Below are positions 44,250 to 62,617 of a stretch of 64,000 bases of DNA, piece after piece. The stretch is from assembly GCF_009766105.1 (NCBI RefSeq), contig NZ_LMUH01000008.1, forward strand, positions 70,180 through 134,179, read 5' to 3'. Under the pieces are notes generated by a model that worked only from the letters and a program-made list of their open reading frames with translations, was not told the origin of the DNA and ran no database searches. A program made the translations under genes and the position numbers. This DNA is from Granulicella sp. S156. GTDB taxonomy: Bacteria > Acidobacteriota > Terriglobia > Terriglobales > Acidobacteriaceae. Position 1 is the first letter of the stretch; every line of letters begins with the position of its first letter.

Positions 44250-44542
44250 AAGGTTCGAAACCAAACGAGATATCTTGGTTTCGCACCTCGAATTCATCCG
44301 AGCGGCCGCTCTTCTCGTTAGCAATTTGGAACGGAGGCCCCTACAGGAGTATTTAGAGTCCCTGCAGCGCACAATTCGGTGAAGTTCTGTTCCAGGTCCA
44401 GGGCGTGGATCGTTGTCTCTCACTTACAGCTGCAACAAATTGCCGAACTGTGAAACAGTCACGCTCCTACTTTTGGAGGATTCGCATAAATGCATGACTG
44501 GTGTAACGTGGTCGCCAAAGGCAGGAGGGATACCAGGAGCTT
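44250..44542. other. Gap before the TIM-barrel pair
   Basis: 293 bases carrying copy A of the shared element and the AGGAG ribosome site of the next gene. A 66-codon open frame at 44182-44382 overlaps the end of the isoprenoid gene and has no support as a gene. Confidence 0.45.
44463..44487 (+). promoter_or_regulatory. Shared 25-bp element, copy A
   Basis: GCTCC, ten spacer bases and GGATTCGCAT; the spacer includes CTTTTGG. It matches copy B at 51120-51144 in 21 of 25 positions and lies 55 bases before the sugar-isomerase start at 44543, pointing toward it. Candidate operator. Confidence 0.6.
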
Positions 44543-45418
44543 ATGAACTTGATCTCACGGCGTCGATTTGTGCAGGTTGGAGCTGCAGTTATGTGCACGC
44601 GTTTGGCGCGGACGCAGCCAGCGCGGTTACCGCTGCTACAGGTCCCGATTGGGCTACAGCTTTATAGTGTAGGCGACGATCTACAGAAGGACGTTCCCGG
44701 GACACTGCGGCAAATTAGGGCGCTTGGGTATGAGCGGGTAGAGACGGCAGGATTTGCGGGGCTGACCGCCAAGGCGTTTCGTACTCAGCTCGATCAGGCA
44801 CGGTTGGTGTGTCCGAGCACGCACCTGCCGGTGGGAAACCACGAACTGGGTCCACTCTTCGAGGATGCACACGTCGTCGGTGCACGGTATGTAGTGAGCT
44901 CGGCGCTGTTTTCTAAGAGCGGAGATCAAACACTCGATGATTACCGCACAATGGCGGACCGGCTCAACGATCTGGGACGCAAGGCAAAGGCCGTGGGACT
45001 TCAGTATGCCTACCACAACCACAACTTTGAGTTCCGCAAGTTGGACGGCGACAGGATTGGGTACGACGTGTTGCTGAAGCATACGGACCCGGAGCTGGTA
45101 GCTTTTGAGCTGGATTGCGGCTGGATAGTGGCGGCCGGATTCAACCCGATTGAGTATTTCCGCCACTATCCGGGACGCTATCGGATGCTGCACGTGAAGG
45201 ATTTTGTTGCGACGACGGGGCCGAGCACATCGCTCGCAAAGGATGAGCGGCCGCAGGGTGTGGAACTGGGACGTGGACATATCCACTACAAGCCGATCCT
45301 TCTTGCGGCGGCCGAGGCAGGCATCCACGACTACTACGTGGAGCAGGAGCCGCCGTTCCTCGACATGCCTGCGCTCGCGGCGATAAAAGTTGATTATCAG
45401 TATCTGCGTACCTTATAG
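44543..45418 (+). CDS. Exported sugar phosphate isomerase/epimerase-like TIM-barrel protein
   Basis: 291 residues with AGGAG three bases before the ATG. A twin-arginine-type start (SRRRFVQVGAAV, residues 5-16) indicates export in folded form. The body is a xylose-isomerase-like TIM barrel (AP endonuclease 2 family): PIGLQLYSVGDDL, TLRQIRALGYERVETAGF, GLQYAYHNHNFEFRK, VAFELDCGWIV, MLHVKDF and DYYVEQEPP. The HNHNFEF, FELD, HVKD and EQE residues are the usual metal ligands. Such proteins isomerise, epimerise or cleave free or keto-sugars. Tat export suggests a periplasmic substrate. The next gene, 23 bases on, encodes a second TIM-barrel enzyme, and element copy A lies upstream. Confidence 0.88.
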   Translation: MNLISRRRFVQVGAAVMCTRLARTQPARLPLLQVPIGLQLYSVGDDLQKDVPGTLRQIRALGYERVETAGFAGLTAKAFRTQLDQARLVCPSTHLPVGNHELGPLFEDAHVVGARYVVSSALFSKSGDQTLDDYRTMADRLNDLGRKAKAVGLQYAYHNHNFEFRKLDGDRIGYDVLLKHTDPELVAFELDCGWIVAAGFNPIEYFRHYPGRYRMLHVKDFVATTGPSTSLAKDERPQGVELGRGHIHYKPILLAAAEAGIHDYYVEQEPPFLDMPALAAIKVDYQYLRTL

Positions 45419-45441
45419 ATACGCGAGCTGCGGAGGGACGA

Positions 45442-46314
45442 ATGAATCGTAGAGAGTTTGGAAAGATGGGTGTGGGAGCGGCTCTGGCGTCGACATGGCC
45501 TGTGGCCGCGCAGAGCGTTGGCGCGGCAAACAAAGTGCGATTCTCCTTCATGCTGTGGGCACTCGAGAAGCAGGCACCGTTCGACCAATGCCTGGAATGG
45601 GTGGCCGAAGCGGGGTACCAAGGCGTTGAGTTGGTGGGTGAGTTTCAGAGCTGGTCGCCCACGGAGAGAGCAGCCACCATGGCGAGGATGCGCCGCCTCG
45701 GGATGATCTTTGATGCTATGAGCGGAGTGAAGGCAGGATTCGCGGTGCCGGCGCAGACAGAGACGTTTCGTACGCAGTTCATTGAACAGATGAGGGCGGC
45801 GAAGGAACTGGAGTGTTCGAAGATTATTCTGCTCTCGGGCAAACGGGTAGAGGGGCTGCGCGACGGCGTGCAGCGGCAGACATCCATCGATAATCTTAAG
45901 TGGGCAGCCGAGAGAGCGGCAAAAGAGCAGATCGACATCGTGATTGAACCGATCGATCTGCTGGAGAATCCGACCATCGATCTGGCGTCTGTGACGGATG
46001 GCTTCGATATTGTGCAGGCAGTCAACAGCTCGAATGTGAAGGTTTTATACGACTTCTACCATGAGCAGCGGAGCTTCGGGAACCTGATCGAAAAACTCGA
46101 GAAGAACATCGAATGGATAGGCCTGGTGCATGTGGCCGATGTGCCGGGACGGCATGAGCCGGGGACGGGCGAGATCGACTACGAGTCGATCTATCGTAAA
46201 CTGGCCGAGTTCAACTACAGCCATTGGATTGCGATGGAGTACTACCCGACCGAAGAGCCCGTAGCATCCCTGAAAAAGTCACGGATGGAAGCGCTGCGAG
46301 CTATGAAGCAATAA
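45442..46314 (+). CDS. Exported hydroxypyruvate-isomerase-like TIM-barrel protein
   Basis: 290 residues. Tat-like start NRREFGKMGVGAAL (residues 2-15), then a TIM barrel of the hydroxypyruvate isomerase (Hyi) branch: FSFMLWALEKQAPFDQCLEW, YQGVELVGEF, DIVIEPIDLLENP, VKVLYDFYHEQRS, LVHVADVPGRHEPGTGEIDY and WIAMEYYPTEEP. The VPGRHEPGTGEIDY motif is characteristic. Classical Hyi is cytoplasmic and converts hydroxypyruvate to tartronate semialdehyde. An exported form near glycoside hydrolases more likely acts on a sugar derivative (inference). It starts 23 bases after the preceding TIM-barrel gene and should be translated from the same message. It converges on the frameshifted GH2 with 38 bases between. 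Confidence 0.87.
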   Translation: MNRREFGKMGVGAALASTWPVAAQSVGAANKVRFSFMLWALEKQAPFDQCLEWVAEAGYQGVELVGEFQSWSPTERAATMARMRRLGMIFDAMSGVKAGFAVPAQTETFRTQFIEQMRAAKELECSKIILLSGKRVEGLRDGVQRQTSIDNLKWAAERAAKEQIDIVIEPIDLLENPTIDLASVTDGFDIVQAVNSSNVKVLYDFYHEQRSFGNLIEKLEKNIEWIGLVHVADVPGRHEPGTGEIDYESIYRKLAEFNYSHWIAMEYYPTEEPVASLKKSRMEALRAMKQ

Positions 46315-46352
46315 TCCAGAAGATCCGACTGCATCTGCGGCTGGAGATGAAG

Positions 46353-48840
46353 CTAATTCGTCTCTATGCTGATCTGCGCAGAAACAAGCGACGGCGAAGA
46401 TGCCGAGAGTGTGATCTGTCCGGGACGTCCGTTCGATTGGACGAGAACGAGAGCCAGGCCATTGAAGGCCCGTCGACTGCTGGCTTTATAAGGCTCATGG
46501 CTGTCGGGTTGGCCATTGTCAACGCCAAGAATGTGACCAGCGCCCGTAAGCGAGAAGGTCATTGCGTTATCGGCAGTAGGAACAATGCGGCCTTGTGCGT
46601 CCTGCACGGCGACGGTGATATGAGCTACATCATCCGGCGTGGTGCGGAGCCGTTGCCGATCATTCATAAGCGCTAGCTTCGCAGGTGCTCCGGTAGTGTG
46701 AACCTCAACGGCTTCGATAGCCCTGCCATCCTTAATGCCCTTCGCTGTGATGGTTCCAGGCATATAGGGCACATCCCATGTGAGGTGCAGGTCTGCGGTA
46801 GTCTGGAGCACATTGGCACCCGGCGGGTAATTGCCATAATGTCCGACCATACCGGGTCGCGGGAAGCTATAGCCTTTTGTGCCGAGGCTTTCGCCGTTCA
46901 GAAACAGCTCTACGGTCTCGCAGTTTGTGAAGCACGTGACGGGTATCACCTTGCCCTCTTTGCCGAGCCAGTTCCAGTGGGGCTGTAGATGCAAGACGGG
47001 TTGCTTCGTCCAGATGCTTTGGTAGAAATAGAAGCTATCTTTTAGAAAACCGCAGGTATCGAGTGCGCCGCTCACGGCAAGCTTGTTCGGCCACTTCGCT
47101 TCACCGAGATAATCGATACCAACCCAAAGAAAGTCGCCGCTCACGTAGTCGTAGGTCTGGACAAACTTTTGCTGTTGCTCGACCTGGATGAGATTATTCG
47201 TTGGCCGTTCCAGGATGTCGTCGATCGGCTGCTCGGTAAAGTAGACGCCGCGTGCGCCGCGCAGTGCAGAGCTCTCGGTGCCGATAAAACGACGCTGCGG
47301 AGAGGCCTGCCTGTCGATGCTGGAATACTTCTCGCGACGGTCGCGCCAGCGGTCCACATAGTTATATCCGACGACATCGAGCTTATCCAGAAAGTCCGGA
47401 GGCGCAGCCTTGGGCTCGGCGGCGATCTGATCACAGCCGACGGTGATGGGCCGCGTGGAATCCTTGCTGTGGATGATCTCGATGAGATGCTGGAGGGTAG
47501 CAGGGCCGTCAGGAGCAGTCTGGTCGGGAACCTCATTACCGGCGCTCCAAATCACGATGGACGGGTGGTTGCGGTCGCGCTCGATCATGGCGGTGAGGTC
47601 GCGCTCCGACCACTCATCGAAGTATCTGTGGTACCCATAGGTCGGCGTCTGCCCTTTCGCGTGCCGCCACTCGTCGAACGCCTCGGCCATCACCAGAAAT
47701 CCCATGCGGTCGAGCATGTCGAGCAGCTCCGGTGCGGGTGGGTTATGGCTGAGCCGGATAGCGTTGCAGCCCATTTGCTGAAGTAGTTCAAGGCGGCGCT
47801 CCCATAGCCGCTCGGGTACCGCTGTGCCAACCGCGCCGCCGTCGCCGTGAATACAAACACCGTTCATCTTGACGTGTTCGCCATTGAGCAGAAAACCGCG
47901 ATCGACGTCGAAGGCAACATGCCGGATCCCGAAGTTGGCAGAGTCCTGATCGATTTGCGTACCGCGGGAGCGCACGGTGCAGCGGGCACAATAGAGGCGC
48001 GGCGTAGTTGTGGACCACAGCGCCGGGGAGGCCACGGTGAGCGTCTGAACCACCGTTGTCTCGGCATCCTTGCCGAGGGTGTGCGGCGTTGTGATCTGCT
48101 GAACGGCCTCGCCGTCAGGCGAGAGAATCTCGGTCGTCAGTTCGAGGCCGGCATCATGGACGCTGTCGTTACGCAGATGAGTGGTGACCTCAATCGTGGC
48201 GCTTCCGCGTGTGATGGACGGCGTGCGGACATAAATACCGTTCTCGACGATATGGATTGGATCGGTGATCCGGAGCCAGGTGTGACGGTAGATGCCGGAA
48301 CCGGAGTACCAGCGGCAGTTGGTCTGGAGAGAGTTGTCGACGCGCACTGCGAGGCAGTTGGGCTTGCCCGGTGGCGCAAGATGTGACGTGAGATCGTAAG
48401 AGAAGCTGATGAAGCCGTAAGGACGCATGCCCAGCGAGATGCCGTTGATCCACACTTCGCTCCGTTGATAGACCCCGGCAAACTGAAGAGCGATGCGTCT
48501 GCCATGCGCCGAGGAGGGCACTATGAAGTGCCTTGCGATACCAGCCGATGCCGGTAGGCAGGTAGGCTCCATTTCCCTTGGCGGGAGCGTTTTCGTCGAA
48601 GCTTCCTTCGATGCTCCAGTCATGGGGGAGGTCGAGACGGCGCCAGGCCTCGTCTTGAAAGTCGGGTGCCTGCGCGCCTGCGGAGTCGCCGAGCAGAAAA
48701 CGCCATCCACGGTCGAAGTTCGCGCGGCGTTCCGGCAGCGATTCATGGTTCGTGTCGGAAGAGGCGTCGAGCCGAAGGGCGGAAGCGGCTCCGGCCATCG
48801 CTACATCACTAAGAAAGTCTCGGCGGGTGATAGGTGACAT
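46353..48840 (-). pseudogene. GH2 beta-galactosidase-like enzyme, frameshifted
   Basis: A full-length GH2 gene read in two frames. The N-terminal part starts at 48840 (ATG with AAAGG upstream): Tat signal [14 protein letters not shown], then [30 protein letters not shown] and GIGWYRK. After the codon for this last Lys, at about 48531, reading must move by one base to continue with [20 protein letters not shown] and [12 protein letters not shown] in the second frame, open to 46353. One extra G would explain it. The rest is intact, including acid/base Glu (VIWSAGNEVPD), nucleophile Glu (RRFIGTESSALRG) and C-terminal sandwich modules. The change is thus a recent mutation or a sequencing error. 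An alternative reading is a working gene with a wrong base call. Copy C of the shared element lies 57 bases upstream. Confidence 0.8.
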
Positions 48841-48897
48841 CGTGGGGCCTTTCTCTGGTTCACTTCTGGCAGAGAAGCTTATCGCGAAAATCGATTG

Positions 48898-48922
48898 CTG
48901 CGAATCCGCCGAAAGGCGGATT
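48898..48922 (-). promoter_or_regulatory. Shared 25-bp element, copy C
   Basis: On the minus strand AATCC, GCCTTTCGGC and GGATTCGCAG, the most symmetric copy. The plus strand 48901-48924 is a perfect ten-base inverted repeat with a GAAA centre. It lies in the divergent gap, 57 bases before the GH2 start (48840) and 67 bases before the plus-strand start at 48990, so it could control both. Confidence 0.65.
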
Positions 48923-48989
48923 CGTATCGATGTGGCGAGCGAGTAGGCTTGATGCGCATTCAAGAAGCAGTCCTAAGCGAGGCAACAGC

Positions 48990-49199
48990 ATGACGACGTG
49001 GCGGGCAATCTGGCTCGGATTCTTAACGGCGGCGGGACTTCAGGTCGCTGCTATCAACGCGACTCGCGCTGGAGCGCAGAGTCCGCAGCAGAATCAGGCC
49101 GGTATGGCTCCCTTTACGATTGAGCTTCGGTGCGGCGGCGCATTCTCCGGCGGACGGTCACGACTACCTAGTACGAAATTAGAATCGAGCGCTAGATGA
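48990..49199 (+). CDS. Short secreted protein or truncated gene, function unknown
   Basis: 69 residues. The start at 48990 has GAGG seven bases upstream. A signal peptide (AIWLGFLTAAGLQVAAINATRAGA, about residues 6-29, written here only to show hydrophobicity limits 6-20) is followed by some 40 residues rich in Ser, Gly and Arg without a recognised motif. The stop codon overlaps the start of the esterase gene (ATGA at 49196-49199), which points to coupled translation. The short mature part, without family resemblance, may be the remnant of a longer secreted enzyme whose body was deleted. Support is modest. Confidence 0.4.
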   Translation: MTTWRAIWLGFLTAAGLQVAAINATRAGAQSPQQNQAGMAPFTIELRCGGAFSGGRSRLPSTKLESSAR

Positions 49200-50074: not shown

Positions 50075-50120
50075 TGGGGCAACACTAGCCAACGAGCCGA
50101 CGAGTGGCATGGCAAGAGGG

Positions 50121-50966: not shown

Positions 50967-51295
50967 GGCGTGGCTCGTGGTACAAGATGGAAGCACGGAA
51001 CTATGCGGACAGAAATCCGGAAGGACAGATCGCTTGCGTGGCACCGGTCCAGGAAACGTGTTATCGAAATATCCAATACCCGCACATGAGGAATACTACC
51101 TTGCAGTGACTCGTCGTTCACTCCTACTTTCGACGGATTCGCATTCCACTTTTTAGGAGTAGCGTGGCTTTTGATCAGTAGTACGGTCTTCACCGTCCCC
51201 CTCGATCAAGAGGGGCGGCTAAAGTATCTGCCGTATTATTTTTTGACGTTGTGTGTCCAGATACATTTCAGGCAAATCTTAGGATGACGAACCTT
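50967..51295. other. Divergent gap between aldo/keto reductase and GH2 gene
   Basis: 329 bases with copy B of the shared element at 51120-51144. CTCCTA at 51121-51126 and TAGGAG at 51154-51159 form a wider inverted repeat around it. No gene is visible in the gap. Confidence 0.5.
51120..51144 (+). promoter_or_regulatory. Shared 25-bp element, copy B
   Basis: ACTCC, TACTTTCGAC and GGATTCGCAT. It differs from copy A at 4 of 25 positions and from copy C at 5. It points toward the GH2 gene, about 150 bases before the preferred start. Confidence 0.6.
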
Positions 51296-53704
51296 ATGGA
51301 TAGACGTGTTTTCCTCCAACGGACGGGCACGCTGCTGGCGGCCTCGACACTGCCGGGCATTTCAGCTTTCTCCGAGGAGAAGCCCACAGTGGGCGGGCGA
51401 TTAGTTCTCCCCATTAACCGTGGCTGGCGATACCACCCCAGCAAGGTCACTGGAGCCGAAGTCCCGGAGTTCGATGACTCTCGCTTCGAAGAGGTCGTGA
51501 TTCCGCACACGAACATCAGCCTTCCCTGGCACAGCTTCGACGATAAAGACTACGAGTTCATCTCAACCTACCGGCGCCGCTTCAGAACGCCGCCTGACAC
51601 TCAAGGCAAACGCATCTTCGTGGACTTCGAAGGTGTCATGACTGCCTCGACAGTATGGATCAACGGCGTCCCACTCGGCGAATACAAGGGCGGCTTCACT
51701 CCGTTTTCCTTTGAGCTGACACCACACTTGCACAAGGACCTGGAAAATGTCCTGACCCTGCAGGTGGATTCAACGGAGCGGAGCGATATCCCACCGTTCG
51801 GCTACGAAATCGACTACATGACTTTCGGCGGTATCTACCGCGAGGTCTCCCTGCGCGTGGTGCCCGCTCTCTATCTTGACAACATCTTTGCGCACCCGAA
51901 AGACGTGCTGAGTGGCAAGCCGGCGCTCGACGTGGACTGCTTCCTCGCAGGCATCGCCCCTCACGGAGATCTCGTGCTCGAAGCAGAACTGCTTGACGGC
52001 GAACGCTCTCTCGCAAAAGCGAACCGATCCTTCAGAGTATCGTCTGCAAGCGATCCTGACGCGGCGGATGATCCGGCTACGAGCGCTCCTGTTTACCTGA
52101 GCACTGAGACGGTAAACGATCCCGGAAAACAGACGATATCGTTCAAGGGGATCGATGGAGTGAAGCTCTGGGATCTGGCGAGCCCAAACCTATATACAGT
52201 CCGTGTGCGTCTCTTGCGCGCTGGAGTTGTCATCGATGAAGACACTCGCCGGATCGGCTTCCGCGAGGCGATCTTCACCGATCACGGTTTCTCGCTGAAC
52301 GGGAAAATTATTAAGCTGCGCGGCCTCGACCGCCACCAGACCTTTCCCTTCGCCGGCCAGGCGATGCCCGCCCGGGTTCAGCGCCAAGACGCGAAGATCC
52401 TTCGCCACAACCTGCACTGCAACATTGTGCGAACGTCTCATTATCCTCAGTCGCGACACTTCCTGGATTGCTGTGACGAGATCGGCCTGCTGGTGCTCGA
52501 GGAGATTCCAGGCTGGCAGCACATCGGCCCCGAGCCGTGGAAGCTCCTGGCCATCGACAACGTCGGACGCATGGTGCGGCGGGACTGGAACCATCCGGCC
52601 ATCATTCTCTGGGGCGTGCGCATCAACGAGTCTCCAGACGACCATAGCTTCTATACCCGTACCAATGCTCTCGCGCACGCACTCGACCCTACGCGGCAGA
52701 CAGGCGGCATCCGCAACTTCAAGGACTCGGAGTTACTGGAAGATGTCTTCACGATCAATGACTTCGGCTTTCCACTAAGAAAGCCGAACCATCCCCGATA
52801 TCTCAATACCGAATTCGTCGGCCATACGTTCCCGACCAAAACAACGGATGATGATGAGCGGCAGCGCGAACACACGCTGCGCCATGCTCGCATCCATAAT
52901 CAGCTCGCGTCCGATCCGCAATACGCGGGCGGCATCGGCTGGTGCGCCTTCGACTACAACACCCATGCAAACTTCGGCGCGGGCGACCGTATCTGCTATC
53001 ACGGTGTTACGGACATCTTCCGCGAGCCCAAGCCCGCCGCTGGCTTCTATAAATCACAGTGCGATCCGTCAGAAGAAATCGTCCTCGAGCCGGCCTTCCA
53101 CTGGGCCAACAGCGACGAATCGACCTCCTTCACCGAGGCCGTCGTCTGTTCGAACTGCGACCACCTGAAGTTTTACCAACGCAGCAACAGCCTGGTGGGC
53201 AATCCATGGGAGTTGATCACGGAACTCGATCCGGACCGTGCGAATTTTCAATATCTGAAGTATCCGCCATTCATTCTCGACCGGACGAAATTGCAGCAAC
53301 CTCACCGGCACGTCTGGGGCGATCTCAAGATCGATGGATATTTGCAGGGCAAGCAGGTCGCGTCAAAAACCCTTTCCGGGCTGGGTGTCGACCAGAAGTT
53401 CTCTCTGCTCCCCGACGATACGGCGCTCCATGCCGACGGAGCCGACACAACGCGAGTTGTCATGCGGGTCACGGACGAGTTCGGAGCCATACGGACTTAT
53501 GCCAACGATCCCATCGTATTCAAACTCGAGGGTCCTGCAACACTGATCGGCGATAACCCCTTCGCTCTGATCGGCGGAACCGGCGCGGTTTGGATTCGCG
53601 CGAAGACACAGGCAGGCAGCGTGCGGTTGACCGCGATACATCCTCGGCTTGGCTCCCAAACGATTGAGTTCCATCTCACCGCTGTTCCAGCAGAACTGGT
53701 CTAG
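51296..53704 (+). CDS. GH2 beta-galactosidase/glucuronidase-like enzyme, Tat-type signal
   Basis: About 802 residues from the ATG at 51296 (in-frame ATG at 51284 and GTG at 51251 also possible; ribosome sites are weak for all). Export signal DRRVFLQRTGTLLAASTLPG near residues 2-21. GH2 sandwich (INRGWRYHP, VVIPHTNISLPWHSFDD, VDFEGVMTASTVWINGVPLG), immunoglobulin-like domain, then TIM barrel with LRGLDRHQTFPFAGQ, acid/base Glu445 (LWGVRINESPDD) and nucleophile Glu506 (YLNTEFVGHTFP). A long C-terminal part with beta-sandwich modules follows. It should remove a terminal beta-linked sugar; galactose or glucuronic acid cannot be told apart. First of four same-strand genes, ten bases before the VOC gene. 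Confidence 0.9.
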   Translation: MDRRVFLQRTGTLLAASTLPGISAFSEEKPTVGGRLVLPINRGWRYHPSKVTGAEVPEFDDSRFEEVVIPHTNISLPWHSFDDKDYEFISTYRRRFRTPPDTQGKRIFVDFEGVMTASTVWINGVPLGEYKGGFTPFSFELTPHLHKDLENVLTLQVDSTERSDIPPFGYEIDYMTFGGIYREVSLRVVPALYLDNIFAHPKDVLSGKPALDVDCFLAGIAPHGDLVLEAELLDGERSLAKANRSFRVSSASDPDAADDPATSAPVYLSTETVNDPGKQTISFKGIDGVKLWDLASPNLYTVRVRLLRAGVVIDEDTRRIGFREAIFTDHGFSLNGKIIKLRGLDRHQTFPFAGQAMPARVQRQDAKILRHNLHCNIVRTSHYPQSRHFLDCCDEIGLLVLEEIPGWQHIGPEPWKLLAIDNVGRMVRRDWNHPAIILWGVRINESPDDHSFYTRTNALAHALDPTRQTGGIRNFKDSELLEDVFTINDFGFPLRKPNHPRYLNTEFVGHTFPTKTTDDDERQREHTLRHARIHNQLASDPQYAGGIGWCAFDYNTHANFGAGDRICYHGVTDIFREPKPAAGFYKSQCDPSEEIVLEPAFHWANSDESTSFTEAVVCSNCDHLKFYQRSNSLVGNPWELITELDPDRANFQYLKYPPFILDRTKLQQPHRHVWGDLKIDGYLQGKQVASKTLSGLGVDQKFSLLPDDTALHADGADTTRVVMRVTDEFGAIRTYANDPIVFKLEGPATLIGDNPFALIGGTGAVWIRAKTQAGSVRLTAIHPRLGSQTIEFHLTAVPAELV

Positions 53705-53714
53705 GGGGACCTGC

Positions 53715-54680: not shown

Positions 54681-54706
54681 GCGAAGTTTTTCAACTCGGA
54701 GGAAAG

Positions 54707-55216
54707 ATGAAGCGATACATAGTTGCACTACTGGTGGCGTCTCTGGTCTCGCCTGCACTTGTTGTCGCACAGACCGGCCCGGATGCCTCACAGACCGCAA
54801 AGGCCTCGAGCAGCTTCGACGAGGTTGCCGATCAGGCTCTTGCCGCCATGAAGATCAAGGCCCAGACGATGGGTATTGGCGGAGTTGCCGTAGTGGCGTA
54901 CTTCGAGGGCGACACGATTCAGGCATGGAGTTCGAAGATGATCGTGGTAGGCCGGTATAAGGACCTCCCGACGGCGACCGACAAAGGTTCAAATCTGCTG
55001 GCCATCGCCTATGCCAAGGCCTCCGAGATGGCTGATACCCTCAAAGACAGCGGGAGCGGAATCAGGCCACCCATGACCGGAGAATTCGGCTGGAATGGCG
55101 GTGTGATCGCACGCGGTAAAACGGGTTATGTAATCGCTGCCTTCAGCGGAGGTAAATCCGAGGACGATGCGGAGATCTCGCGTGAGGGTTTGTCGAAGCT
55201 CAAGGCGAAACTTTAG
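54707..55216 (+). CDS. GlcG/HbpS-like protein (heme-degrading family), secreted
   Basis: 169 residues from the ATG at 54707, which has a textbook GGAGGAA site. Signal peptide 1-22 (YIVALLVASLVSPALVVAQ), then one GlcG/HbpS domain: FDEVADQALAAMKIKAQTMG, VAVVAYFEGDTIQAW, NLLAIAYAKASEMADTL, and the Gly-rich end WNGGVIARGKTGYVIAAFSGG. Family members bind heme or small ligands and often sit beside glycolate or sugar-acid genes; few have proven activity. The gene lies 26 bases after the VOC gene. The gap of about 90 bases to the transporter suggests one message for all four genes. Confidence 0.85.
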   Translation: MKRYIVALLVASLVSPALVVAQTGPDASQTAKASSSFDEVADQALAAMKIKAQTMGIGGVAVVAYFEGDTIQAWSSKMIVVGRYKDLPTATDKGSNLLAIAYAKASEMADTLKDSGSGIRPPMTGEFGWNGGVIARGKTGYVIAAFSGGKSEDDAEISREGLSKLKAKL

Positions 55217-55304
55217 TTGGGTTCATGAGCGTCCATACGTCTCGTGCAACTGAAAGCCGGAACGATCTCTGACAACCTTCCCTAACTCGACTCGCCACGA
55301 CCGG

Positions 55305-56573
55305 TTGCCACGGCACCGCTGGCGCATCGCATGTCTCCTTGGGTTTGGCGTCCTCGTCAACTACTTTGACCGAGTAAATCTTTCGGTCTCGCACGCTGCG
55401 CTTTACACCACCTTTGGCATTTCAAACATCACCTTCGGCTATCTCTCCGGAGCTTACAACTGGACCTACGCGATGTGCCAGTTGCCGGTCGGAGTTCTTC
55501 TCGATCGCTTTGGCGTACGGCGTGTAGGACGTATCAGCACGCTGCTTTGGAGCATAGCCTCCTTCGGTGCAGCAGTGACACCGAGCATCCCAGGGTTCTT
55601 TGCAGCGCGGTTGCTTCTCGGCGTGGGCGAATCACCAACCTTCCCGGCGAATGCCAAGGCAATCGGCCTTTGGTTTCCCTCCAAAGAGAGAAGCTTTGCC
55701 ACCTCTATCTTCGATGCCTCCGCCAAGCTCGCATCGGCTATCGGTGTACCTCTCATTGGGGTACTGCTACTGAAGTTTGGCTGGCGGTGGAGCTTCGCCG
55801 CAACCGGCCTGGTCAGCTTGCTTTATTTCGCTCTGTTCTCAAAGATCTATCGCGATCCCAACGCCGAAACGACGCTGACCGATAGCGAGCGGCAATACAT
55901 TGCGGAGGGCTCGCAGATCACTCTTGCGCACAATCCAGAGCCATCGAAAGCGTCGCTGGGATATCTGATTCGACAGCGGAAGGTTCTGGGGATGGCGATC
56001 GGTTTCGGAGCCTATAACTATGTCTTCTACCTCTTACTCACATGGCTGCCCAGCTATCTCTCCGCAGCGCTGCATATCGACCTGCTGCACTCCTTTCTTT
56101 ACACCAGCGTGCCTTGGCTATTCGCCACATTTACCGATCTGATGGCGGGCCTGGTGTCGGATGCACTCATTCAGCGTGGATGGGACGCAAGCCGTGTACG
56201 AAAGACAGTTCTCGTCAGCGGTACTACCTTCGGACTTGGCATTCTTGGCGCGGCTCACGCGCATACAGCCGTTCGTGCGCTGATCTGGATCAGCATCTCC
56301 ATCGGTGGACTTGCCGCAGCCTCACCCATCGGCTGGTCCATACCGTCGATGATCGCTCCGCGCGGCAGCGTTGGAACTGTAGGCGGCATCATCAATCTAT
56401 CGAATCAACTCTCCGGAATCGCCGCTCCGATCATCACAGGCTACGTTGTTGCCGAAACAAAATCTTATTCGTGGGCGTTTGGCATCTCTGCAATTTATTT
56501 GCTCCTAGGCATCAGCAGCTATCTCTTTCTGCTCGGCAAGATCGAACAGATCGCGCCGGAGCCTGCTTCCTAA
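55305..56573 (+). CDS. MFS transporter, hexuronate/aldonate (ACS) family-like
   Basis: 422 residues, twelve predicted membrane spans. The first span carries NYFDRVNLSVSHAAL, the ACS-family N-terminal motif (D-R-N in the first helix). LPVGVLLDRFGVRRVGR is the loop 2-3 MFS signature, and LLLGVGESPTFPANAKAIGLWFP is typical of galactarate, glucarate and hexuronate symporters. It should import a sugar acid with protons. The only in-frame starts are TTG at 55305 and CTG at 55269, with no ribosome site, so initiation is weak, or the true start lies behind an unnoticed frameshift. It is the last gene after GH2, VOC and GlcG-like genes. The convergent ADH-SDR pair would fit oxidation of the imported acid. 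Confidence 0.87.
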   Translation: MPRHRWRIACLLGFGVLVNYFDRVNLSVSHAALYTTFGISNITFGYLSGAYNWTYAMCQLPVGVLLDRFGVRRVGRISTLLWSIASFGAAVTPSIPGFFAARLLLGVGESPTFPANAKAIGLWFPSKERSFATSIFDASAKLASAIGVPLIGVLLLKFGWRWSFAATGLVSLLYFALFSKIYRDPNAETTLTDSERQYIAEGSQITLAHNPEPSKASLGYLIRQRKVLGMAIGFGAYNYVFYLLLTWLPSYLSAALHIDLLHSFLYTSVPWLFATFTDLMAGLVSDALIQRGWDASRVRKTVLVSGTTFGLGILGAAHAHTAVRALIWISISIGGLAAASPIGWSIPSMIAPRGSVGTVGGIINLSNQLSGIAAPIITGYVVAETKSYSWAFGISAIYLLLGISSYLFLLGKIEQIAPEPAS

Positions 56574-56727: not shown

Positions 56728-57534
56728 TCATTCGACATCCGGCCTGGATGGTGGCTGCACGCTGGCACGGGTCGACCCGGTGGAAATTCCGCCGTCGACA
56801 AGGAGCGTCTGTCCTGTCATGTAACGGCTTGCCTCGGAGGCCAGAAAGACCATAGCCCCATCCAGATCGTGCGGCTCTCCCGGGCGCTTTAATGGAATGC
56901 GATCGATCAGGTAATCGACCCACTCCTGGTTCTCGTACAGCACCTTGTTCTGCGCGGTCTGAAACCAGCCAGGAGCCAGGCAGTTTACCGTGATGCCGTA
57001 TCGTCCCCAGTCATCGGCCAGGCTCATCGTAAGCTGTCGAATGCCGCCGCGGCTCGCGCCATAAGGCGCCAGTCCCGCATAGCCGAACACGCTTGTCACT
57101 GAGCCAATATTGACGATCCGCCCATAGCCGTGTGGCACCATCTGTTTCGCAATCTGCTGCGCGACAAAAAAACTTCCCCGCAGATTGGTCTCCAGAATCA
57201 AGTTCCAATCATCCCAGGTAACCTCCAACGCCGGCTTCCGCACATTGCATCCCGCATTGTTGACAAGGATGTGAACCCGTCCCAGCGCCTCCACCGAGGC
57301 GGCCATCGCCTCGATGCTGCCCTGGTCTCGCACGTCGAGTTCGAGCGGAATGGCTTTTCTTCCCAAACCCTCGATCTCCGCTACAAACGGCAGCAGATCG
57401 TTCTTGTGTCGGCTGGTAACAATAAGATCCGCACCAGCCTTGGCCAGGGCGCGACCGAAGTACTGTCCCAACCCTCTGCTTGCTCCAGTAATCAATGCTA
57501 CCTGTCCAGTGAGATCGAAGAGAGTGGAGGTCAT
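56728..57534 (-). CDS. Short-chain dehydrogenase/reductase, gluconate 5-dehydrogenase-like, with Lys-to-Arg change
   Basis: 268 residues, cytoplasmic. Cofactor motif TGASRGLG at 16-23, NNAG at 92-95, catalytic Ser145 (NIGSVTS) and Tyr158 (APYGASRGG). The residue that is Lys in the YxxxK motif is Arg162; the codon is CGC on the minus strand and unambiguous. C-terminal GWFQTAQNKVL and FLASEASRYMTGQTLLVDGG match the 2-keto-gluconate/gluconate 5-dehydrogenase branch. Its ATG overlaps the stop of the alcohol dehydrogenase gene (ATGA, 57531-57534), so the two are translated together and may act in turn on a sugar acid. The Arg may lower or change activity. Confidence 0.88.
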   Translation of the reverse strand: MTSTLFDLTGQVALITGASRGLGQYFGRALAKAGADLIVTSRHKNDLLPFVAEIEGLGRKAIPLELDVRDQGSIEAMAASVEALGRVHILVNNAGCNVRKPALEVTWDDWNLILETNLRGSFFVAQQIAKQMVPHGYGRIVNIGSVTSVFGYAGLAPYGASRGGIRQLTMSLADDWGRYGITVNCLAPGWFQTAQNKVLYENQEWVDYLIDRIPLKRPGEPHDLDGAMVFLASEASRYMTGQTLLVDGGISTGSTRASVQPPSRPDVE

Positions 57535-58601
57535 CGTGAAGGTGAGAACCTTTCTGTCGAAAAATCGTTACGCGGGTCCAGTACGATCTTCATCAGGTTG
57601 GGCTCGCGCGCATGGAGCCGTTCGAACCACGAAGCTCCGTCGGTTAAAGGCGCAACCGCCGTAATTAAAGATGCAACCTTGATCTCGTTCCTTGCAATCA
57701 TCTCTATCGCTTGCGGATACTCACCCGCCGAAGCGCATGATCCCTGGAGACGGAGCTGTCGCGACACCACCTTCTGAAGCGGCAAAGTAACCTGTGGGGA
57801 GATGTTGCCAACCAGCGTTACAGTGCCACACTTGCGTACACAGTCGATGCCCGCGGCGATCGTCTCGTCGCGGCCCACCGCTTCCAGCACCACATCCACA
57901 CCGCGTCCATTCGTTCTCTGCAGAATCGCTTCAACTAGTGAGGTGCCGGAGGCAAGAAAGGTCTCATCCGCTCCCAGTTCCTCCGCCAGTTTCAGCCGCG
58001 TCTCGTCGACATCCGAGATATACACGCGCGAGGCGCCGGCCGCGCGCGCAGCCTGCAACAGCAGAAGACCGATCATACCGGCGCCAATGACCAGAACGAC
58101 CTCTTTCCCCATCAACTCCGATACCGCCACCCCATGCAGCGCTACCGACACCGCCTCCAGCATCGCTGCCTCCGGATACGACAGGTTATCCGGAAGCCGG
58201 TACGCCACGCGCGCCGGCACAGTCAGAAGCTCCGCAAAGGCTCCAGCACGGCGATACTCACCGCAGGAGACACCAATCACTTCCCTTTTATCGCAAAGGT
58301 TCACCTGGCCCTGCAAGCAGTAATCACATACTCCGCAAAAAACCGTCGAATCAAACGTCACACGGTCCCCCGGAGCAAATCCGCTGACTTCGGTCCCAAC
58401 CACAACCACGATGCCCGCAGCCTCATGTCCCATCACAATCGGCGGAATTCGACGGCCTGTCGATCCGTCATAACCATGCACATCGCTGCCGCAAATACCG
58501 CAGGCTGCAACCTGAATCAGAAGCTCATCTGGCCCCGGAGTGGGATCAGGCAAATCCCGCATCTCCAGATGGTTGTATTCGGTGAGAAGCAAAGCTTTCA
58601 T
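57531..58601 (-). CDS. Zinc-dependent alcohol/polyol dehydrogenase (MDR family)
   Basis: 356 residues. Catalytic zinc ligands Cys37 (ACGICGSDVHG) and His59-Glu60 (MGHEAAG); structural zinc cysteines 89, 92, 95 and 103 (FCGVCDYCLQGQVNLC). The Rossmann motif VVLVIGAGMIGLLLLQAA is near 168-186, followed by YISDVDETRLKLAEELGADE, whose Asp after the second strand suggests NAD(H). This is the sorbitol/L-threonine dehydrogenase-like branch, which oxidises polyols or sugar acids. It precedes the SDR gene with a four-base overlap and follows receptor 6 after a terminator. The start at 58601 is the natural ATG of the family (MKALLLTEYN). Confidence 0.9.
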   Translation of the reverse strand: MKALLLTEYNHLEMRDLPDPTPGPDELLIQVAACGICGSDVHGYDGSTGRRIPPIVMGHEAAGIVVVVGTEVSGFAPGDRVTFDSTVFCGVCDYCLQGQVNLCDKREVIGVSCGEYRRAGAFAELLTVPARVAYRLPDNLSYPEAAMLEAVSVALHGVAVSELMGKEVVLVIGAGMIGLLLLQAARAAGASRVYISDVDETRLKLAEELGADETFLASGTSLVEAILQRTNGRGVDVVLEAVGRDETIAAGIDCVRKCGTVTLVGNISPQVTLPLQKVVSRQLRLQGSCASAGEYPQAIEMIARNEIKVASLITAVAPLTDGASWFERLHAREPNLMKIVLDPRNDFSTERFSPSR

Positions 58602-58757
58602 AGGAATAGGATCTCAGTTCTTCCATCTCGATGTCTGAATTGAATATAGACAGCCGTGCGTTCCGATTTCGGCTGCCGCGCTGCGTATCAGACTCATCCA
58701 CTGTTGTAGCACTGCAACGTGCGCAGGCTGTGAGTTTTACATACCGGAAAAGAAAGC

Positions 58758-58782
58758 AGTCCGGGCCAGTATGGCCCGGACT
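58758..58782 (-). terminator. Rho-independent terminator of receptor 6
   Basis: AGTCCGGGCC and GGCCCGGACT form a perfect ten-base stem with a five-base loop. On the minus strand GCTTTCTTTTCC follows, 18 bases beyond the receptor stop codon. Confidence 0.85.
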
Positions 58783-58799
58783 GGAAGGTAAAGCTCGAA

Positions 58800-61700
58800 T
58801 TAGAAGGTGAACTTGATGGCTCCCTGTTGTACACGAGCTGGCTCAAAACCGGTTGACGTAATCTGGCCTTCCTGTCCGCCCTGGTTCACGCCTGTCGCGC
58901 TGATCTGGTTGCTCGAGTTGGGGACGGCAAAAGATGGATGGTTGAAGACATTGAACATCTCCCACCGGAATTGCAGGTTGTACTTCTGGGTGATCTTCCA
59001 GTTCTTGTCGAAGCCCGCGTCACCCCACTGCTGTGGGGGACCCAGTATGAAGTTCTTCGGGGTGTTTCCAAACGTTCCCGGAGCGTTCACCTGGAATGCA
59101 TTGATGTTGAAGTAATTTTGCGTCCACTGGATATCACTGCCGCGACGTACGTTTAGGTTTTGTCCCGGCGCGAAGTCAGCGCGGTCCTCATTCTGTAGAG
59201 AGCCTGAGTTGTTATTTCCATCGAGACCGGCGCTGACACCAAAGCCGGGGCCAGACATCCAGGTATAGACGCCGCTTACCTCCCAGCTTCCCAGCAACTC
59301 CTGTATCAGCAGATTGTGTCCTCTCAACGCAGGAGAGGTATAGATAAAGTTACTTACCGACACAATCGGGAAGTTCTGCTGGGAGATACCACGGTTATAC
59401 CGAAGGTTGAAGGGATTAGGCAGTTGTGGTGTGCCGAAGCTGATATTCGACGAACTGGCATCGTCTATCGTCTTCGACCAGGTGAGGTTGGACTGGAATT
59501 GCAATCCGTGGGAGAACTTGCGCTCCAACGAGGCCTGCATTGAGTTATAGCTGGACGTGCCCACGCTGACAGTATCGAGAATCGCGCCGAATGCAGGATA
59601 CATACTACGCGTGCCGCCTGTAGCGTAAATCCCAGGGTTCATATCAATGACAGTGGACTGGTGGTAGCTTTCACTGCCTACATATGCCAGGGTGAAGACC
59701 ATGTTGGCACCAAACCCCTGTTGTACCGAAATATTCCAGCTTTGCGTAGTTCCAAGCTTGAAGTTGGGAGCGATCGTCGCCGGTATCTCAAGGCCTGGAG
59801 TAAAGGTCGCGCTCGCCGGCGGCTTAGTAGAGACCGAGGCGAAGGGCGGAAACGGGCTTTGGCCGTTCGTTCCCGGAAAGCCAGCCCATGGATTCTGCAG
59901 GGACAGCGGCACCCCAGGTGTGTTTCCCTGCGTGGTCGTACCCTGATAGGTAAACGTCGGAGCGAACGGACTGTTATCGGCAGTATGGTTATATGCCGAG
60001 TAGATCATCGGGGAAGTGAACAGACCGAAGCCCGCGCGAATGGAGGTCTGGGGCAACGCCTTGGGCTGCCAGGCAATGCCAAGGCGTGGCTCATAGTAGC
60101 CATAGGTAGTAGCCATCAGGCCGCTACCTATCCCGGCGTCTCCTGGAAATACGAGCCCGGTCGGAGCATTGGGATATACAGTACTTTGCTGACCCGGTAC
60201 GAACGTTGCCGCTCGTCCGTTGGCAATCTGCGGTGCAATGTTCGGGTCCCAGCGTAGGCCGGCGGTGAAAGTGATATTCGGGCGCAACTTGAATTGGTCC
60301 TGCCCATAGAAACCTGGCTGCCAACCGGCGACATCCGCAATCTCACCAGCCCCCTGAAAGATTGAATACAGATCGCCGAGAAGGAAGTCGGCAAGCCCAT
60401 TATTCGTATATTGCCCGCTGAAGTCGATCTCCGGCTCGGTCGGGTACTGCGTGTACTCTTCGGCGAACTGGTGCTGAATATTGACTCCGAACTGAAGAGT
60501 ATGTCTTCCCAGAGTCTTGGTAAAGTTGTCGTAGAAGCCGTAGGTCGTGCGCACTTCCTGAGAAGGTTCGTAGTAGCCAGTTTCGAAACCGCCATCGGAG
60601 ACTGTAAAGCCTTCGACGGAGCAGGAGCCAGGAAGTTCCTGGACGTTGATGTATTTCGACCAGCAGAATGGCTGACCTGTGCTGGTCAGGGCTGCGGATC
60701 CATTATGTGCGGACATTTGAGTCCAGAAGATCGAAGCCACATTGACCGTGCTGGGATTGATGACCCACGTATGGCTCAAAGTCTCGTTGAAGTACTGCAT
60801 CCTTTCGCCAAACGTGTCTCCGTAAGGGGACAGATCGAGCAAGGACAGAATGTTGCCGGGCACATCGCCTGAGGGTTGATTCAGATTATTAACAAAGCTG
60901 CTCACCGCGATCCGCTGCGAGGGAGAGATGTCGTAGTCGAGTCTGCCGGTGCCCTCGTCGTAGTTGTTGATCGTCGCAGCGCTTGTGTAATAGACGCCGC
61001 CATCCGGCTGTTGCCCCAGGGGCAGCGCTGTTTTGGAAATGGTAACCGCTGCCGCGCTGAAGAGCGCAGGGTTGATCTGGTTAGGAACCCCATTCACCAT
61101 ATGAAAAGGAGCAGCCAACGTCTCTTGCCCGTTCGTCGATAATCCGCTGAAGTCTCCATTGAGCATGGCGGTGGTGGGGGTTTGGGTGAAGTTGGCAGTT
61201 GCCGCGGTCGCGGATCGCGTTGCCTGGTAATTGATAAAGAAGAATAGCCTATTCTTCAGAACCGGGCCGCCCACATAGCCGCCATACTGATTGCGGTGCA
61301 AAGGATCTACGGTGTGGCTAAACCAGTTTTTGGCGTTGAAAGTCTGGTCGCGCAGGAACTCGAACATACCGCCATGGAACTCGTTGGTGCCGTTCTTGGT
61401 ATTGATGCTAACCACCGCGCCGGGCGCAAAACCATAGGCGGCGCTGAAGTTGTTGGTGATGATGCGGAACTCTTCCGTCGCATCGGCGTTAGGGAACGGT
61501 GCAGCCAGGCCAAGATAAGTATCCATGTTGGGTACGCCGTTCAACAGGTAGTAAGTGCTGCCCTGCCGTCCGCCGCCTGCCGCTGCGCCTGTTTCCGTCG
61601 GGAAAGAGAAGCCGCTCTGGAGGTAGCTGTTGCCAAAGCTGGCGTTGATGACACCAGGAGCAAGGAAAACCAGAGACGAGGGGTCGCGGCCATTCAGTGG

Positions 61701-62147
61701 CAACTGAGAAATTGCCTGCTCGTTGACGGTCATGCCCAACTCAGGAGTGGTGGTATTGATCAGCTCGGCATCGGAAGTAACCGTAACCGTCTGGCTCTCA
61801 CTCCCAATCTTGAGCACCACGTTTTGCGTGGAAGCGAAATCGACAGAGAGTGTGATTCCCTTCTGGACGTAACCGGCAAAACCCGTCGCCTGAATGGTTA
61901 GTGAATACCTTCCAGGCGGAAGAGGGTTGATAAGATAGACACCGCTCGCGTCGGTGGTCCTGGTTTGGACCAGGTTCGTGTCCGTGTTTTTGGCGGTAAC
62001 CGTCGCATTTGGGACGACAGCTCCGGTGGGGTCGGTCACCTGGCCAGTGAGACTCGCGCTCGTACCCTGGCCAAGCGCCATGGTGGCAGAAATCCCGAAC
62101 AGCATCAAGGTGAGCGTCCGCAACAAATAGTGAATAGAACTTTTCAT
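58800..62147 (-). CDS. Oar-like TonB-dependent outer-membrane receptor 6
   Basis: 1115 residues; the ATG at 62147 has GAGGCTAGGA directly upstream. Signal peptide about 8-27 (LRTLTLMLFGISATMALGQ), regulatory-like domain 30-115 (LTGQVTDPTGAVVPNATVTA), plug about 130-255 (LPLNGRDPSSLVFLAPGVI, GSTYYLLNGVPNMDTYLG, AYGFAPGAVVSINTKNGTN) and a barrel ending GAIKFTF. Copy D of the shared element lies 214 bases upstream on the same strand. This suggests joint control with the two GH2 genes and the TIM-barrel pair, and so a role as the uptake receptor of that glycan system. The GH35 gene upstream runs in the same direction. Confidence 0.93.
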   Translation of the reverse strand: MKSSIHYLLRTLTLMLFGISATMALGQGTSASLTGQVTDPTGAVVPNATVTAKNTDTNLVQTRTTDASGVYLINPLPPGRYSLTIQATGFAGYVQKGITLSVDFASTQNVVLKIGSESQTVTVTSDAELINTTTPELGMTVNEQAISQLPLNGRDPSSLVFLAPGVINASFGNSYLQSGFSFPTETGAAAGGGRQGSTYYLLNGVPNMDTYLGLAAPFPNADATEEFRIITNNFSAAYGFAPGAVVSINTKNGTNEFHGGMFEFLRDQTFNAKNWFSHTVDPLHRNQYGGYVGGPVLKNRLFFFINYQATRSATAATANFTQTPTTAMLNGDFSGLSTNGQETLAAPFHMVNGVPNQINPALFSAAAVTISKTALPLGQQPDGGVYYTSAATINNYDEGTGRLDYDISPSQRIAVSSFVNNLNQPSGDVPGNILSLLDLSPYGDTFGERMQYFNETLSHTWVINPSTVNVASIFWTQMSAHNGSAALTSTGQPFCWSKYINVQELPGSCSVEGFTVSDGGFETGYYEPSQEVRTTYGFYDNFTKTLGRHTLQFGVNIQHQFAEEYTQYPTEPEIDFSGQYTNNGLADFLLGDLYSIFQGAGEIADVAGWQPGFYGQDQFKLRPNITFTAGLRWDPNIAPQIANGRAATFVPGQQSTVYPNAPTGLVFPGDAGIGSGLMATTYGYYEPRLGIAWQPKALPQTSIRAGFGLFTSPMIYSAYNHTADNSPFAPTFTYQGTTTQGNTPGVPLSLQNPWAGFPGTNGQSPFPPFASVSTKPPASATFTPGLEIPATIAPNFKLGTTQSWNISVQQGFGANMVFTLAYVGSESYHQSTVIDMNPGIYATGGTRSMYPAFGAILDTVSVGTSSYNSMQASLERKFSHGLQFQSNLTWSKTIDDASSSNISFGTPQLPNPFNLRYNRGISQQNFPIVSVSNFIYTSPALRGHNLLIQELLGSWEVSGVYTWMSGPGFGVSAGLDGNNNSGSLQNEDRADFAPGQNLNVRRGSDIQWTQNYFNINAFQVNAPGTFGNTPKNFILGPPQQWGDAGFDKNWKITQKYNLQFRWEMFNVFNHPSFAVPNSSNQISATGVNQGGQEGQITSTGFEPARVQQGAIKFTF

Positions 62148-62617
62148 TCCTAGCCTCTTCTTTCAAGCAAAATCAAATCAAGGATTCGATTGGCAGCGAG
62201 TGGCCTGCCGTCGTAACCGTCTTCATTTCGCTGGGGAATCTCTGCGTATCCACCCATCTTTCGTGCTCTCATCAGGCTCGCGATGTTTCAGCCAGTACCC
62301 TAGACCGACTCGAAAATACCGTGCCCGATTGCGACCCCACTATAGGCGCGCACAACAATTACTCGAATCCGCCAAAAGTTGGATTGGTAGCGATTTATTC
62401 ATGCAAGTGATCTTCGAACGGTCTGGAACTCTTTGGGCCGGGTAGAGAGAACCTGTTTAGGGTCCAATTTCCGATAGAACGACGCATTAAATCCCGTTTT
62501 TTTGGCGATTGATATCGACAAGCTTTGCAGACAGCTTCTATACCGACGTGCCGCATTGCCGCTCCCATCGTCAAGCGTAGGTGCGATGCAATGCGACTAG
62601 AGGACTCCGACCGGCAC
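62148..62617. other. Gap between GH35 gene and receptor 6
   Basis: 470 bases. Copy D of the shared element is at 62361-62385. I see no gene and no convincing terminator for the GH35 gene. Confidence 0.5.
62361..62385 (-). promoter_or_regulatory. Shared 25-bp element, copy D
   Basis: On the minus strand AATCC, AACTTTTGGC and GGATTCGAGT. The CTTTTGG core, GGATTCG and the AATCC half-site are kept. It is the most distant copy from its gene (214 bases before receptor 6) and differs in the last three bases. Confidence 0.55.

What the first reader, a model, noticed from the sequence alone, without database searches (positions are those of the whole stretch)
44463..62385. A 25-bp element shared by four glycan-use transcription units
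Four intergenic copies at 44463-44487 (+), 51120-51144 (+), 48898-48922 (-) and 62361-62385 (-) share the pattern NNTCC-N10-GGATTCG with a CTTTYG core. Copies A and B agree at 21 of 25 bases, B and C at 20. Each points toward the gene behind it: the TIM-barrel pair, GH2 (51296), GH2 (48840) and receptor 6. AATCC...GGATT is a dyad, as expected for a dimeric regulator. No regulator gene lies between the copies, so a master regulator is probably encoded elsewhere. This is the best candidate here for an undescribed regulon.
Basis: partly seen in the sequence, partly recalled or inferred. Interest (0 to 1): 0.8.

Follow-up and report, generated by a model that had tools for sequence, protein, structure and literature searches.

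The report
Promoter element of a galactan-use regulon
The four DNA copies are real promoter elements that, together with two more just outside the window, probably let a neighbouring sensor-and-switch protein pair turn on one cluster of plant-galactan-eating genes in a soil acidobacterium and many of its relatives.

Summary
The four copies are real. Two more lie 1.3 and 5.4 kb past the window edge. The element is larger than described: dyad TCCNNCTTTNGNNGGAT, 21 or 22 bases, then a TANNNT -10 box. Exact matches in the 6.4-Mb genome are these six only. The dyad sits near -43, over the -35, as at NarL-activated promoters.

Instead a NarL-type response regulator and a propeller-sensor histidine kinase, like that of Bacteroides hybrid two-component systems, lie between the two extra copies. 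The element follows this regulator across genomes: of 80 loci picked by regulator similarity alone, 46 of 62 with at least 60% identity carry a site, 0 of 18 below that. Of 22 further cores in those loci, 21 have the -10 at that distance. Sites mostly precede outer-membrane receptors, GH53-like and GH2/GH35 genes (115 of 124, counting some related loci).

Best reading: an undescribed local two-component regulon for beta-galactan use, a split, NarL-output counterpart of Bacteroides HTCS control. Binding, phosphotransfer, activation and ligand are inferred. Sixteen of the 62 loci lack a site, some on long contigs.

The parts
44463..44487 (+). Copy A of the element: dyad core 44465-44481 overlapping the -35 region, before the TIM-barrel pair
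   Evidence: kept (1 mismatch) in two close relatives
44504..44509 (+). -10-like box TAACGT of promoter A, 22 bases after the core
44543..46314 (+). Transcription unit A: two xylose-isomerase-like TIM-barrel genes (44543-45418, 45442-46314)
   Evidence: operon inferred from spacing
48898..48922 (-). Copy C of the element: perfect palindrome, core 48904-48920, before the GH2 gene
48876..48881 (-). -10-like box TAAGCT of promoter C
48944..48949 (+). Second -10-like box TAGGCT at the same distance on the other side of palindrome C; possible divergent promoter
   Evidence: hit C25:119084-119128 +, 3 mismatches; inference only
46353..48840 (-). GH2 beta-galactosidase-like gene; in this genome the reading frame starting at 48840 and the main frame 46353-48746 differ
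51120..51144 (+). Copy B of the element, core 51122-51138, before the second GH2 gene
51160..51165 (+). -10-like box TAGCGT of promoter B, 21 bases after the core
51251..56573 (+). Transcription unit B: GH2 (51251-53704, true start probably later), glyoxalase-like 53649-54680, 195-aa ORF 54629-55216 (no Pfam), MFS transporter 55305-56573
   Evidence: operon inferred from spacing
62361..62385 (-). Copy D of the element, core 62367-62383, before the Oar-like receptor
62339..62344 (-). -10-like box TATAGT of promoter D
56728..62147 (-). Transcription unit D: Oar-like outer-membrane receptor 58800-62147, zinc alcohol dehydrogenase 57531-58601, short-chain dehydrogenase 56728-57534
   Evidence: operon inferred from spacing
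62618..64000 (-). GH35 gene, cut by the window end (whole ORF C25:132797-135439), under copy E (C25:135470-135489 -, outside the window). Beyond the window follow the NarL-type response regulator C25:135524-136165 (-), the propeller histidine kinase C25:136162-139200 (-), copy F C25:139597-139616 (+) and the ricin/GH53-like gene C25:139646-143416 (+)

Best explanation
The element is the activator site and core promoter of a local two-component regulon for use of beta-galactan, probably pectic galactan or arabinogalactan. Proposed working: the periplasmic propeller/Y_Y_Y sensor of the kinase (C25:136162-139200) binds a galactan oligosaccharide, and the kinase (His807) phosphorylates the response regulator (C25:135524-136165, Asp63). 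The regulator binds as a dimer to the 16-bp dyad TCCNNCT-TT-NGNNGGA, centred about -43 and overlapping a weak -35 (TTCGNN), and recruits RNA polymerase to the TANNNT -10 box. This would switch on together, in six transcription units, an Oar-like outer-membrane receptor, GH53-like, GH2 and GH35 enzymes, TIM-barrel isomerases, dehydrogenases and an MFS transporter. Shown by computation: the sites, their fixed geometry, their linkage to this regulator and not to more distant paralogues, and the genes behind them. Inferred: phosphotransfer, direct binding, activation rather than repression, transcription starts, operon extents and the ligand.
For: Geometry: of 98 distinct exact cores in regulator-linked loci, 94 have TANNNT exactly 21 (37) or 22 (57) bases downstream (many of these loci were chosen by the motif). 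Held-out: 21 of 22 further distinct cores in loci chosen only by regulator similarity, against 0.9% expected for two positions. Linkage: of 80 loci chosen by regulator similarity, a site with at most 1 mismatch plus -10 is found in 37 of 46 at 65% identity or more, 9 of 16 at 60-65%, and 0 of 18 below 60%; reversed pattern 0 of 80; Fisher p = 6e-9. Across 300 family genomes both occur in 30, motif only in 14, regulator only in 19, neither in 237; p = 4.6e-18. Neither p is corrected for phylogeny. Of the 19 'regulator only' genomes, 12 have a site with at most 1 mismatch near the regulator, mostly with the 21-base spacer. Control: 0 sites in 23 other loci, 459 kb (15 paralogue neighbourhoods, 3 own flanking stretches, 5 others). 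Targets: 115 of 124 sites precede receptors (42), GH53/ricin-like (24), GH2 (16), GH35 (13), a 730-aa putative glycosidase (13), isomerase (4), glyoxalase (2) or the 195-aa gene (1), by best BLAST match (near-identical relatives counted apart). GH53 in two relatives at 4.8e-90 and 2.8e-92. Protein: NarL-type regulator, kinase with propeller sensor. Recognition helix S/C/T-HVS in most site-linked regulators and altered in the paralogues, judged by eye. NarL sites are 7-2-7 inverted repeats, one centred at -44.5 (PMC7419079, passages).
Against: No binding, expression or growth data. 16 of 62 loci with a regulator at least 60% identical have no site; several are short contigs, but some are 19-21 kb (L231, L255, L276, L277, L279). 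G021 has an 85% identical regulator and no site. Seven of the 19 'regulator only' genomes have no site in the stretch fetched. 14 of 44 motif genomes lack a match to the regulator in the scan; two of these, G094 and G227, do show one near a site, but 9 others (G004, G018, G085, G105, G270, G286, G290, G299, G316) have none in 11-20 kb around it. Four of 98 exact cores have no -10 at the expected place. Pfam GH53 is weak for the window genome's own gene (5.7e-13), so its substrate is argued from relatives. That the site activates and does not repress rests on position alone.
Confidence: 0.82

Rival explanations
1. Another DNA-binding protein (a LacI-, AraC- or other one-component regulator, or a global regulator) binds the dyad and the two-component pair is only a neighbour.
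For: A LacI gene and a Trans_reg_C gene lie in the window. Some motif genomes had no match to the regulator in the scan.
Against: The LacI and Trans_reg_C genes have no tblastn match covering half of them in the fetched syntenic stretches (60 kb each) of the two relatives that keep the sites, though they could lie elsewhere in those genomes. Site presence follows identity of the response regulator in loci picked without the motif. The 16-bp dyad and its place resemble NarL-type sites.
Confidence: 0.08
2. The element is a promoter for an alternative (ECF-type) sigma factor, with GGATTCG as the -35 and TANNNT as the -10.
For: Very tight spacing of 21-22 bases.
Against: The distal half TCCNNC mirrors the proximal one; TANNNT is the ordinary sigma-70 -10 form (recalled); no sigma/anti-sigma pair was found among the cluster genes scanned.
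Confidence: 0.05
3. An RNA hairpin (leader regulator, terminator or attenuator) transcribed from the DNA.
For: Copy C folds strongly as RNA, -20.7 kcal/mol, z -5.0.
Against: A, B and D do not fold better than shuffles (z -0.7, -1.0, -0.6). The variable arm positions do not covary clearly: 105 complementary pairs of 188 against a shuffle mean of 96.8 and maximum 114. The -10 lies downstream, so the element should be upstream of the transcript. No Rfam match in 44000-64000.
Confidence: 0.02
4. The site is an operator for repression: the same regulator blocks the -35 and is released by the signal.
For: The dyad overlaps the -35 region, where both activators and repressors can bind.
Against: The -35 part (TTCGNN) is weak, as at activator-dependent promoters, and the NarL site at -44.5 of ogt takes part in activation (PMC7419079, passages).
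Confidence: 0.1
5. A dispersed repeat (REP or MITE-like) that happens to sit between genes.
For: Several similar short copies in one region.
Against: Exact copies with the -10 occur in one cluster only, and all six point at a gene with a -10 at fixed distance.
Confidence: 0.01

Closest known systems
Bacteroides hybrid two-component systems (HTCS), especially HTCS_Pga (BT4673) of the pectic galactan locus BT4667-BT4673
   Same: Homologous periplasmic propeller sensor type (PDB chains 4a2l, 3v9f and 3ott matched; that these are Bacteroides HTCS sensors is recalled); controls a neighbouring GH53 + GH2 + outer-membrane transporter locus (PMC5238430 passages; PMC3878776 passages).
   Different: Here kinase and regulator are two proteins; the output is a NarL/LuxR-type (GerE) domain, not AraC; the site is a 16-bp inverted repeat with fixed -10, not a long-spaced direct repeat; the receptor is Oar-like and no SusD was found. 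PMC3878776 calls the HTCS family unique to Bacteroidetes (passage).
NarX/NarL of E. coli and its 7-2-7 promoters
   Same: Regulator family (PDB NarL 1a04, E 7.8e-33); 7-2-7 inverted repeat beside the -35, one centred at -44.5 (PMC7419079 passages).
   Different: Half-site TCCNNCT is not the NarL heptamer (recalled as TACYYMT); the sensor and target genes differ in role.
EvgS/EvgA of E. coli
   Same: EvgA is a matched relative (5f64, 3.1e-15) and binds inverted repeats (PMC3720670 figure-legend passage). The recalled EvgA box (TTCYTACA-N2-TGTARGAA, from memory, from no call) resembles copy A of the relatives.
   Different: Acid-stress regulon, hybrid kinase with another sensor (recalled); distant in sequence.

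Membership tests
NarL/FixJ-type response regulators | Receiver domain plus C-terminal GerE (LuxR-type) helix-turn-helix | tested here: met
   Response_reg 6.7e-27 and GerE 6e-20; best solved relatives VraR, DevR, ChrA, NarL
NarL/FixJ-type response regulators | Phosphoacceptor aspartate present | tested here: met
   Asp63 in LTLMDLRLPD; assignment of the residue is by recall of the family pattern
NarL/FixJ-type response regulators | Binding as dimer to an inverted repeat near -42 | tested here: inconclusive
   Dyad and position fit; binding itself not testable here
Bacteroides hybrid two-component systems (HTCS) | Periplasmic propeller sensor and histidine kinase | tested here: met
   Reg_prop 1.2e-57, Y_Y_Y 6.1e-13, HisKA_3 1.9e-09, HATPase_c 2.6e-10; a hydrophobic span near 762-785
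Bacteroides hybrid two-component systems (HTCS) | Kinase, receiver and DNA-binding domain in one protein | tested here: not met
   Separate ORFs overlapping by 4 bases
Bacteroides hybrid two-component systems (HTCS) | AraC-type DNA-binding domain | tested here: not met
   GerE domain instead
Bacteroides hybrid two-component systems (HTCS) | Sensor binds an oligosaccharide of the degraded glycan | not testable with these tools
   No ligand data
Polysaccharide utilization locus of the SusC/SusD type | Paired SusC-like receptor and SusD-like lipoprotein | tested here: not met
   Oar-like receptors (PF25183) found, no SusD domain among the cluster proteins scanned; small ORFs were not scanned

The most novel reading that the evidence does not exclude
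Acidobacteria run galactan use through a 'split HTCS': the same kind of glycan-sensing propeller as in Bacteroides, cut loose from the one-protein design and wired to a NarL-type regulator with a short, precisely placed promoter code. The window genome has at least three further NarL-type regulators beside a relative of this kinase, so this may be one of a whole set of glycan-specific sensors in this phylum, each with its own site.
Probability: 0.5. Interest if true: 0.65.

Novelty: new variant of a known kind. Interest (0 to 1): 0.55.

Why it matters
Acidobacteria are among the commonest soil bacteria and break down plant polymers, yet none of the papers listed in my searches (capped lists, titles and abstract openings) describes a glycan regulon of theirs. 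Here a regulator, its site, its promoter geometry and its likely targets come as one testable package across many genera. It predicts the substrate (beta-galactan), gives a DNA code that can find the regulon in unannotated genomes, and points to an uncharacterised family of about 730 aa that may be a glycosidase.

Tried and rejected
RNA hairpin or known RNA family: rejected. Repeat element: rejected. Genome-wide master regulon: rejected; in the own genome the composite has 5 exact hits with the 22-base spacer (A, C, D, E, F) and 1 with the 21-base spacer (B), all in one cluster; one 1-mismatch hit at C20:19674 was not followed up, and with up to 3 mismatches the 96 hits are close to the backwards control's 78. 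Same-geometry dyads for the paralogous regulators: no pairs of similar dyads in 16 paralogue or distant-relative neighbourhoods, so a general code for all such pairs is not shown; that test is weak, since it also found no pair in L032, one of its four positive controls.

Rows dropped before counts: 12 loci without the regulator (L121, L189, L190, L192, L196-L198, L200-L202, L227, L228), and these plus L193, L195 and L199; one search also dropped one duplicate of copy D. Several of the dropped sites are perfect TCCATCTTTNGATGGAT palindromes of unknown meaning. Class-wide scan: 29 of 399 genomes have hits, 9 of them outside the family, whose regulators were not checked. Structure model of the 730-aa target: mean pLDDT only 61.4, nearest solved folds GH5 mannanases, with GH35 and GH42 galactosidases among the first 50; used only as a hint.
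Full report
Check of the observation. The window is G000:C25:70180-134179 of a 6.44-Mb genome. Searching that genome shows two further copies just past the window end: E, C25:135470-135489 (-), and F, C25:139597-139616 (+). With either spacer, no other place in the genome has the whole element without mismatch.

The element is a promoter. Behind every copy, 21 or 22 bases after GGAT, stands a TANNNT box: TAACGT (A), TAGCGT (B), TAAGCT (C), TATAGT (D), TATAGT (E), TAGTAT (F). With the usual place of a -10 this puts the dyad centre at about -43.5 (or -42.5) and the TTCGNN end of the element at the -35. In regulator-linked loci 94 of 98 distinct exact cores have this box at this distance. Because many of those loci had been chosen with the motif, I repeated it on loci chosen only by regulator similarity: 21 of 22 further distinct cores have it, where 0.9% would be expected. 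The -10 also explains why the element has an orientation.

Dyad, not hairpin. The variable positions of the two arms do not covary clearly (105 of 188 complementary, shuffle mean 96.8, maximum 114), and three of the four copies in the window do not fold as RNA better than shuffles. That fits a protein dimer on DNA.

The regulator. Between E and F lie a 213-aa response regulator with a receiver and a GerE domain and, overlapping it by 4 bases, a 1012-aa kinase with Reg_prop propeller, Y_Y_Y, HisKA_3 and HATPase_c domains. The regulator is closest among solved structures to VraR, DevR, ChrA and NarL; the sensor matches chains 4a2l, 3v9f and 3ott, named as sensor kinases or hybrids (I recall them as Bacteroides HTCS sensors). 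Two close relatives, G002 and G022, keep the four window sites (at most 1 mismatch), sites E and F, kinase (94%), regulator (99%) and most of the cluster; the aldo/keto reductase gene is one that they lack there.

Linkage test. In the 28 genomes of the genus, 11 have a regulator at 66% identity or more; of these, 10 have a site with its -10 on a fetched contig (in G023 on another contig than the regulator) and G021 has none. In 300 family genomes both occur together in 30, motif alone in 14, regulator alone in 19, neither in 237, p = 4.6e-18. This is not corrected for shared descent. Looking near the regulator, 12 of the 19 'regulator only' genomes have a site with at most 1 mismatch (10 of them exact, with the 21-base spacer) and 7 have none. 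The cleanest test is the set of 80 loci picked by regulator similarity alone: sites in 37 of 46 at 65% identity or more, 9 of 16 at 60-65%, 0 of 18 below, reversed pattern 0 of 80. Three records with sites in that set are titled Bryobacterales or Bryobacteraceae (L278, L281, L283), which suggests that the system reaches beyond the family. Long loci without a site exist (L231, L255, L276, L277, L279) and remain unexplained. Some regulators with a changed recognition helix (for example S-H to V-R in L188) have no site; this was seen by eye, not tested.

Genes behind the sites. Of 124 sites (at most 1 mismatch, with -10) in the loci examined, 115 precede a gene of the cluster type by best BLAST match: 42 Oar-like receptors, 24 GH53/ricin-like, 16 GH2, 13 GH35, 13 of a 730-aa family without Pfam or NCBIfam match, 4 TIM-barrel isomerases, 2 glyoxalase-like and one 195-aa gene; 9 do not. 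Near-identical relatives are counted apart. In relatives the GH53 hit can be unmistakable (4.8e-90, 2.8e-92), while the window genome's own gene gives 5.7e-13. [quoted passage not shown] The Bacteroides galactan locus has GH53 and GH2 with an HTCS (PMC5238430, passages). In the window the copies would govern A the isomerase pair, B GH2-glyoxalase-195 aa-MFS, C GH2, D receptor-dehydrogenases, and outside E GH35 and F the GH53-like gene. For E and F the listed ORF starts lie 2-3 bases before the inferred transcription start, so the true starts are probably further in.

Conservation against flanks. For A and B the 120 bases upstream have diverged to shuffle level between G000 and G002 (58-62% against a mean of 57%), yet the site is 95-100% identical and the stretch to the -10 84-90%; for C and D the flanks are conserved too and say less.

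Relation to known systems. It looks as if it works like NarL at a 7-2-7 site beside the -35 (PMC7419079, passages), with a sensor of the HTCS kind. It is not an HTCS: kinase and regulator are separate and the output is GerE, not AraC, and HTCS motifs are direct repeats, the family being called unique to Bacteroidetes (PMC3878776, passages; AraC-type output also PMC11253607, passages). A review of hemicellulase regulation has no word beginning LuxR, NarL or Acidobacter (PMC10766802, word counts and passages). The papers listed by my searches (seen as titles and abstract openings, lists capped, for example 10 of 211) include none on this regulon; a Granulicella sp. WH15 paper mentions GH53 only as missing (PMC7074687, passages). 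The library lacks most subscription journals.

Verdict. A real, widely conserved local regulon with an identified likely regulator and no description that I found; a new variant of a known kind. What is missing is any bench evidence.

Noticed in passing
window 46353-48840 (-): The GH2 gene under copy C is split between two reading frames in this genome, whereas G002 and G022 have it in one frame: a broken gene or an assembly error.
   Followed up: partly
window 48944-48949 (+); L052:6497-9133 (+): Copy C is a perfect palindrome with a -10-like box on both sides; in G002 an 878-aa ORF without Pfam match lies on the other side, where this genome has only a short stretch before the esterase gene. 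Possible two-way promoter.
   Followed up: partly
L237:4434-6638 (-) and 13 relatives (alignment A1): A family of about 730 aa, without Pfam or NCBIfam match for the members scanned, is a frequent neighbour of the site (13 of 124); weak similarity to GH5 mannanases and a low-confidence model nearest to GH5 folds, with GH35 and GH42 also listed. Perhaps an undescribed galactan-active glycosidase.
   Followed up: partly
G000:C24:161845, C15:205874, C19:455467 (loci L124, L129, L130): Further NarL-type regulators in the same genome lie beside a full-length relative of the propeller kinase (27-29% identity), so several such pairs exist.
   Followed up: partly
G018:C1:329539, G234:C84:1966, G290:C1:1597603, G116:C2:14711, G116:C5:140296, G514:C16:459279: Perfect palindromes TCCATCTTTNGATGGAT with a TANNNT box at the same distance; the first five have no regulator match in the 11-20 kb fetched around them, the last was not fetched. 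Perhaps sites of a different regulator.
   Followed up: partly
G021:C12:13975-14595: An 85% identical regulator with an almost unchanged helix-turn-helix but no detectable site in 20 kb.
   Followed up: partly
window 17998-27682 (-): Three FAD_oxidored genes and a GH2-type exo-glucosaminidase-like gene beside a Trans_reg_C regulator: perhaps a second, separate carbohydrate cluster.
   Followed up: no
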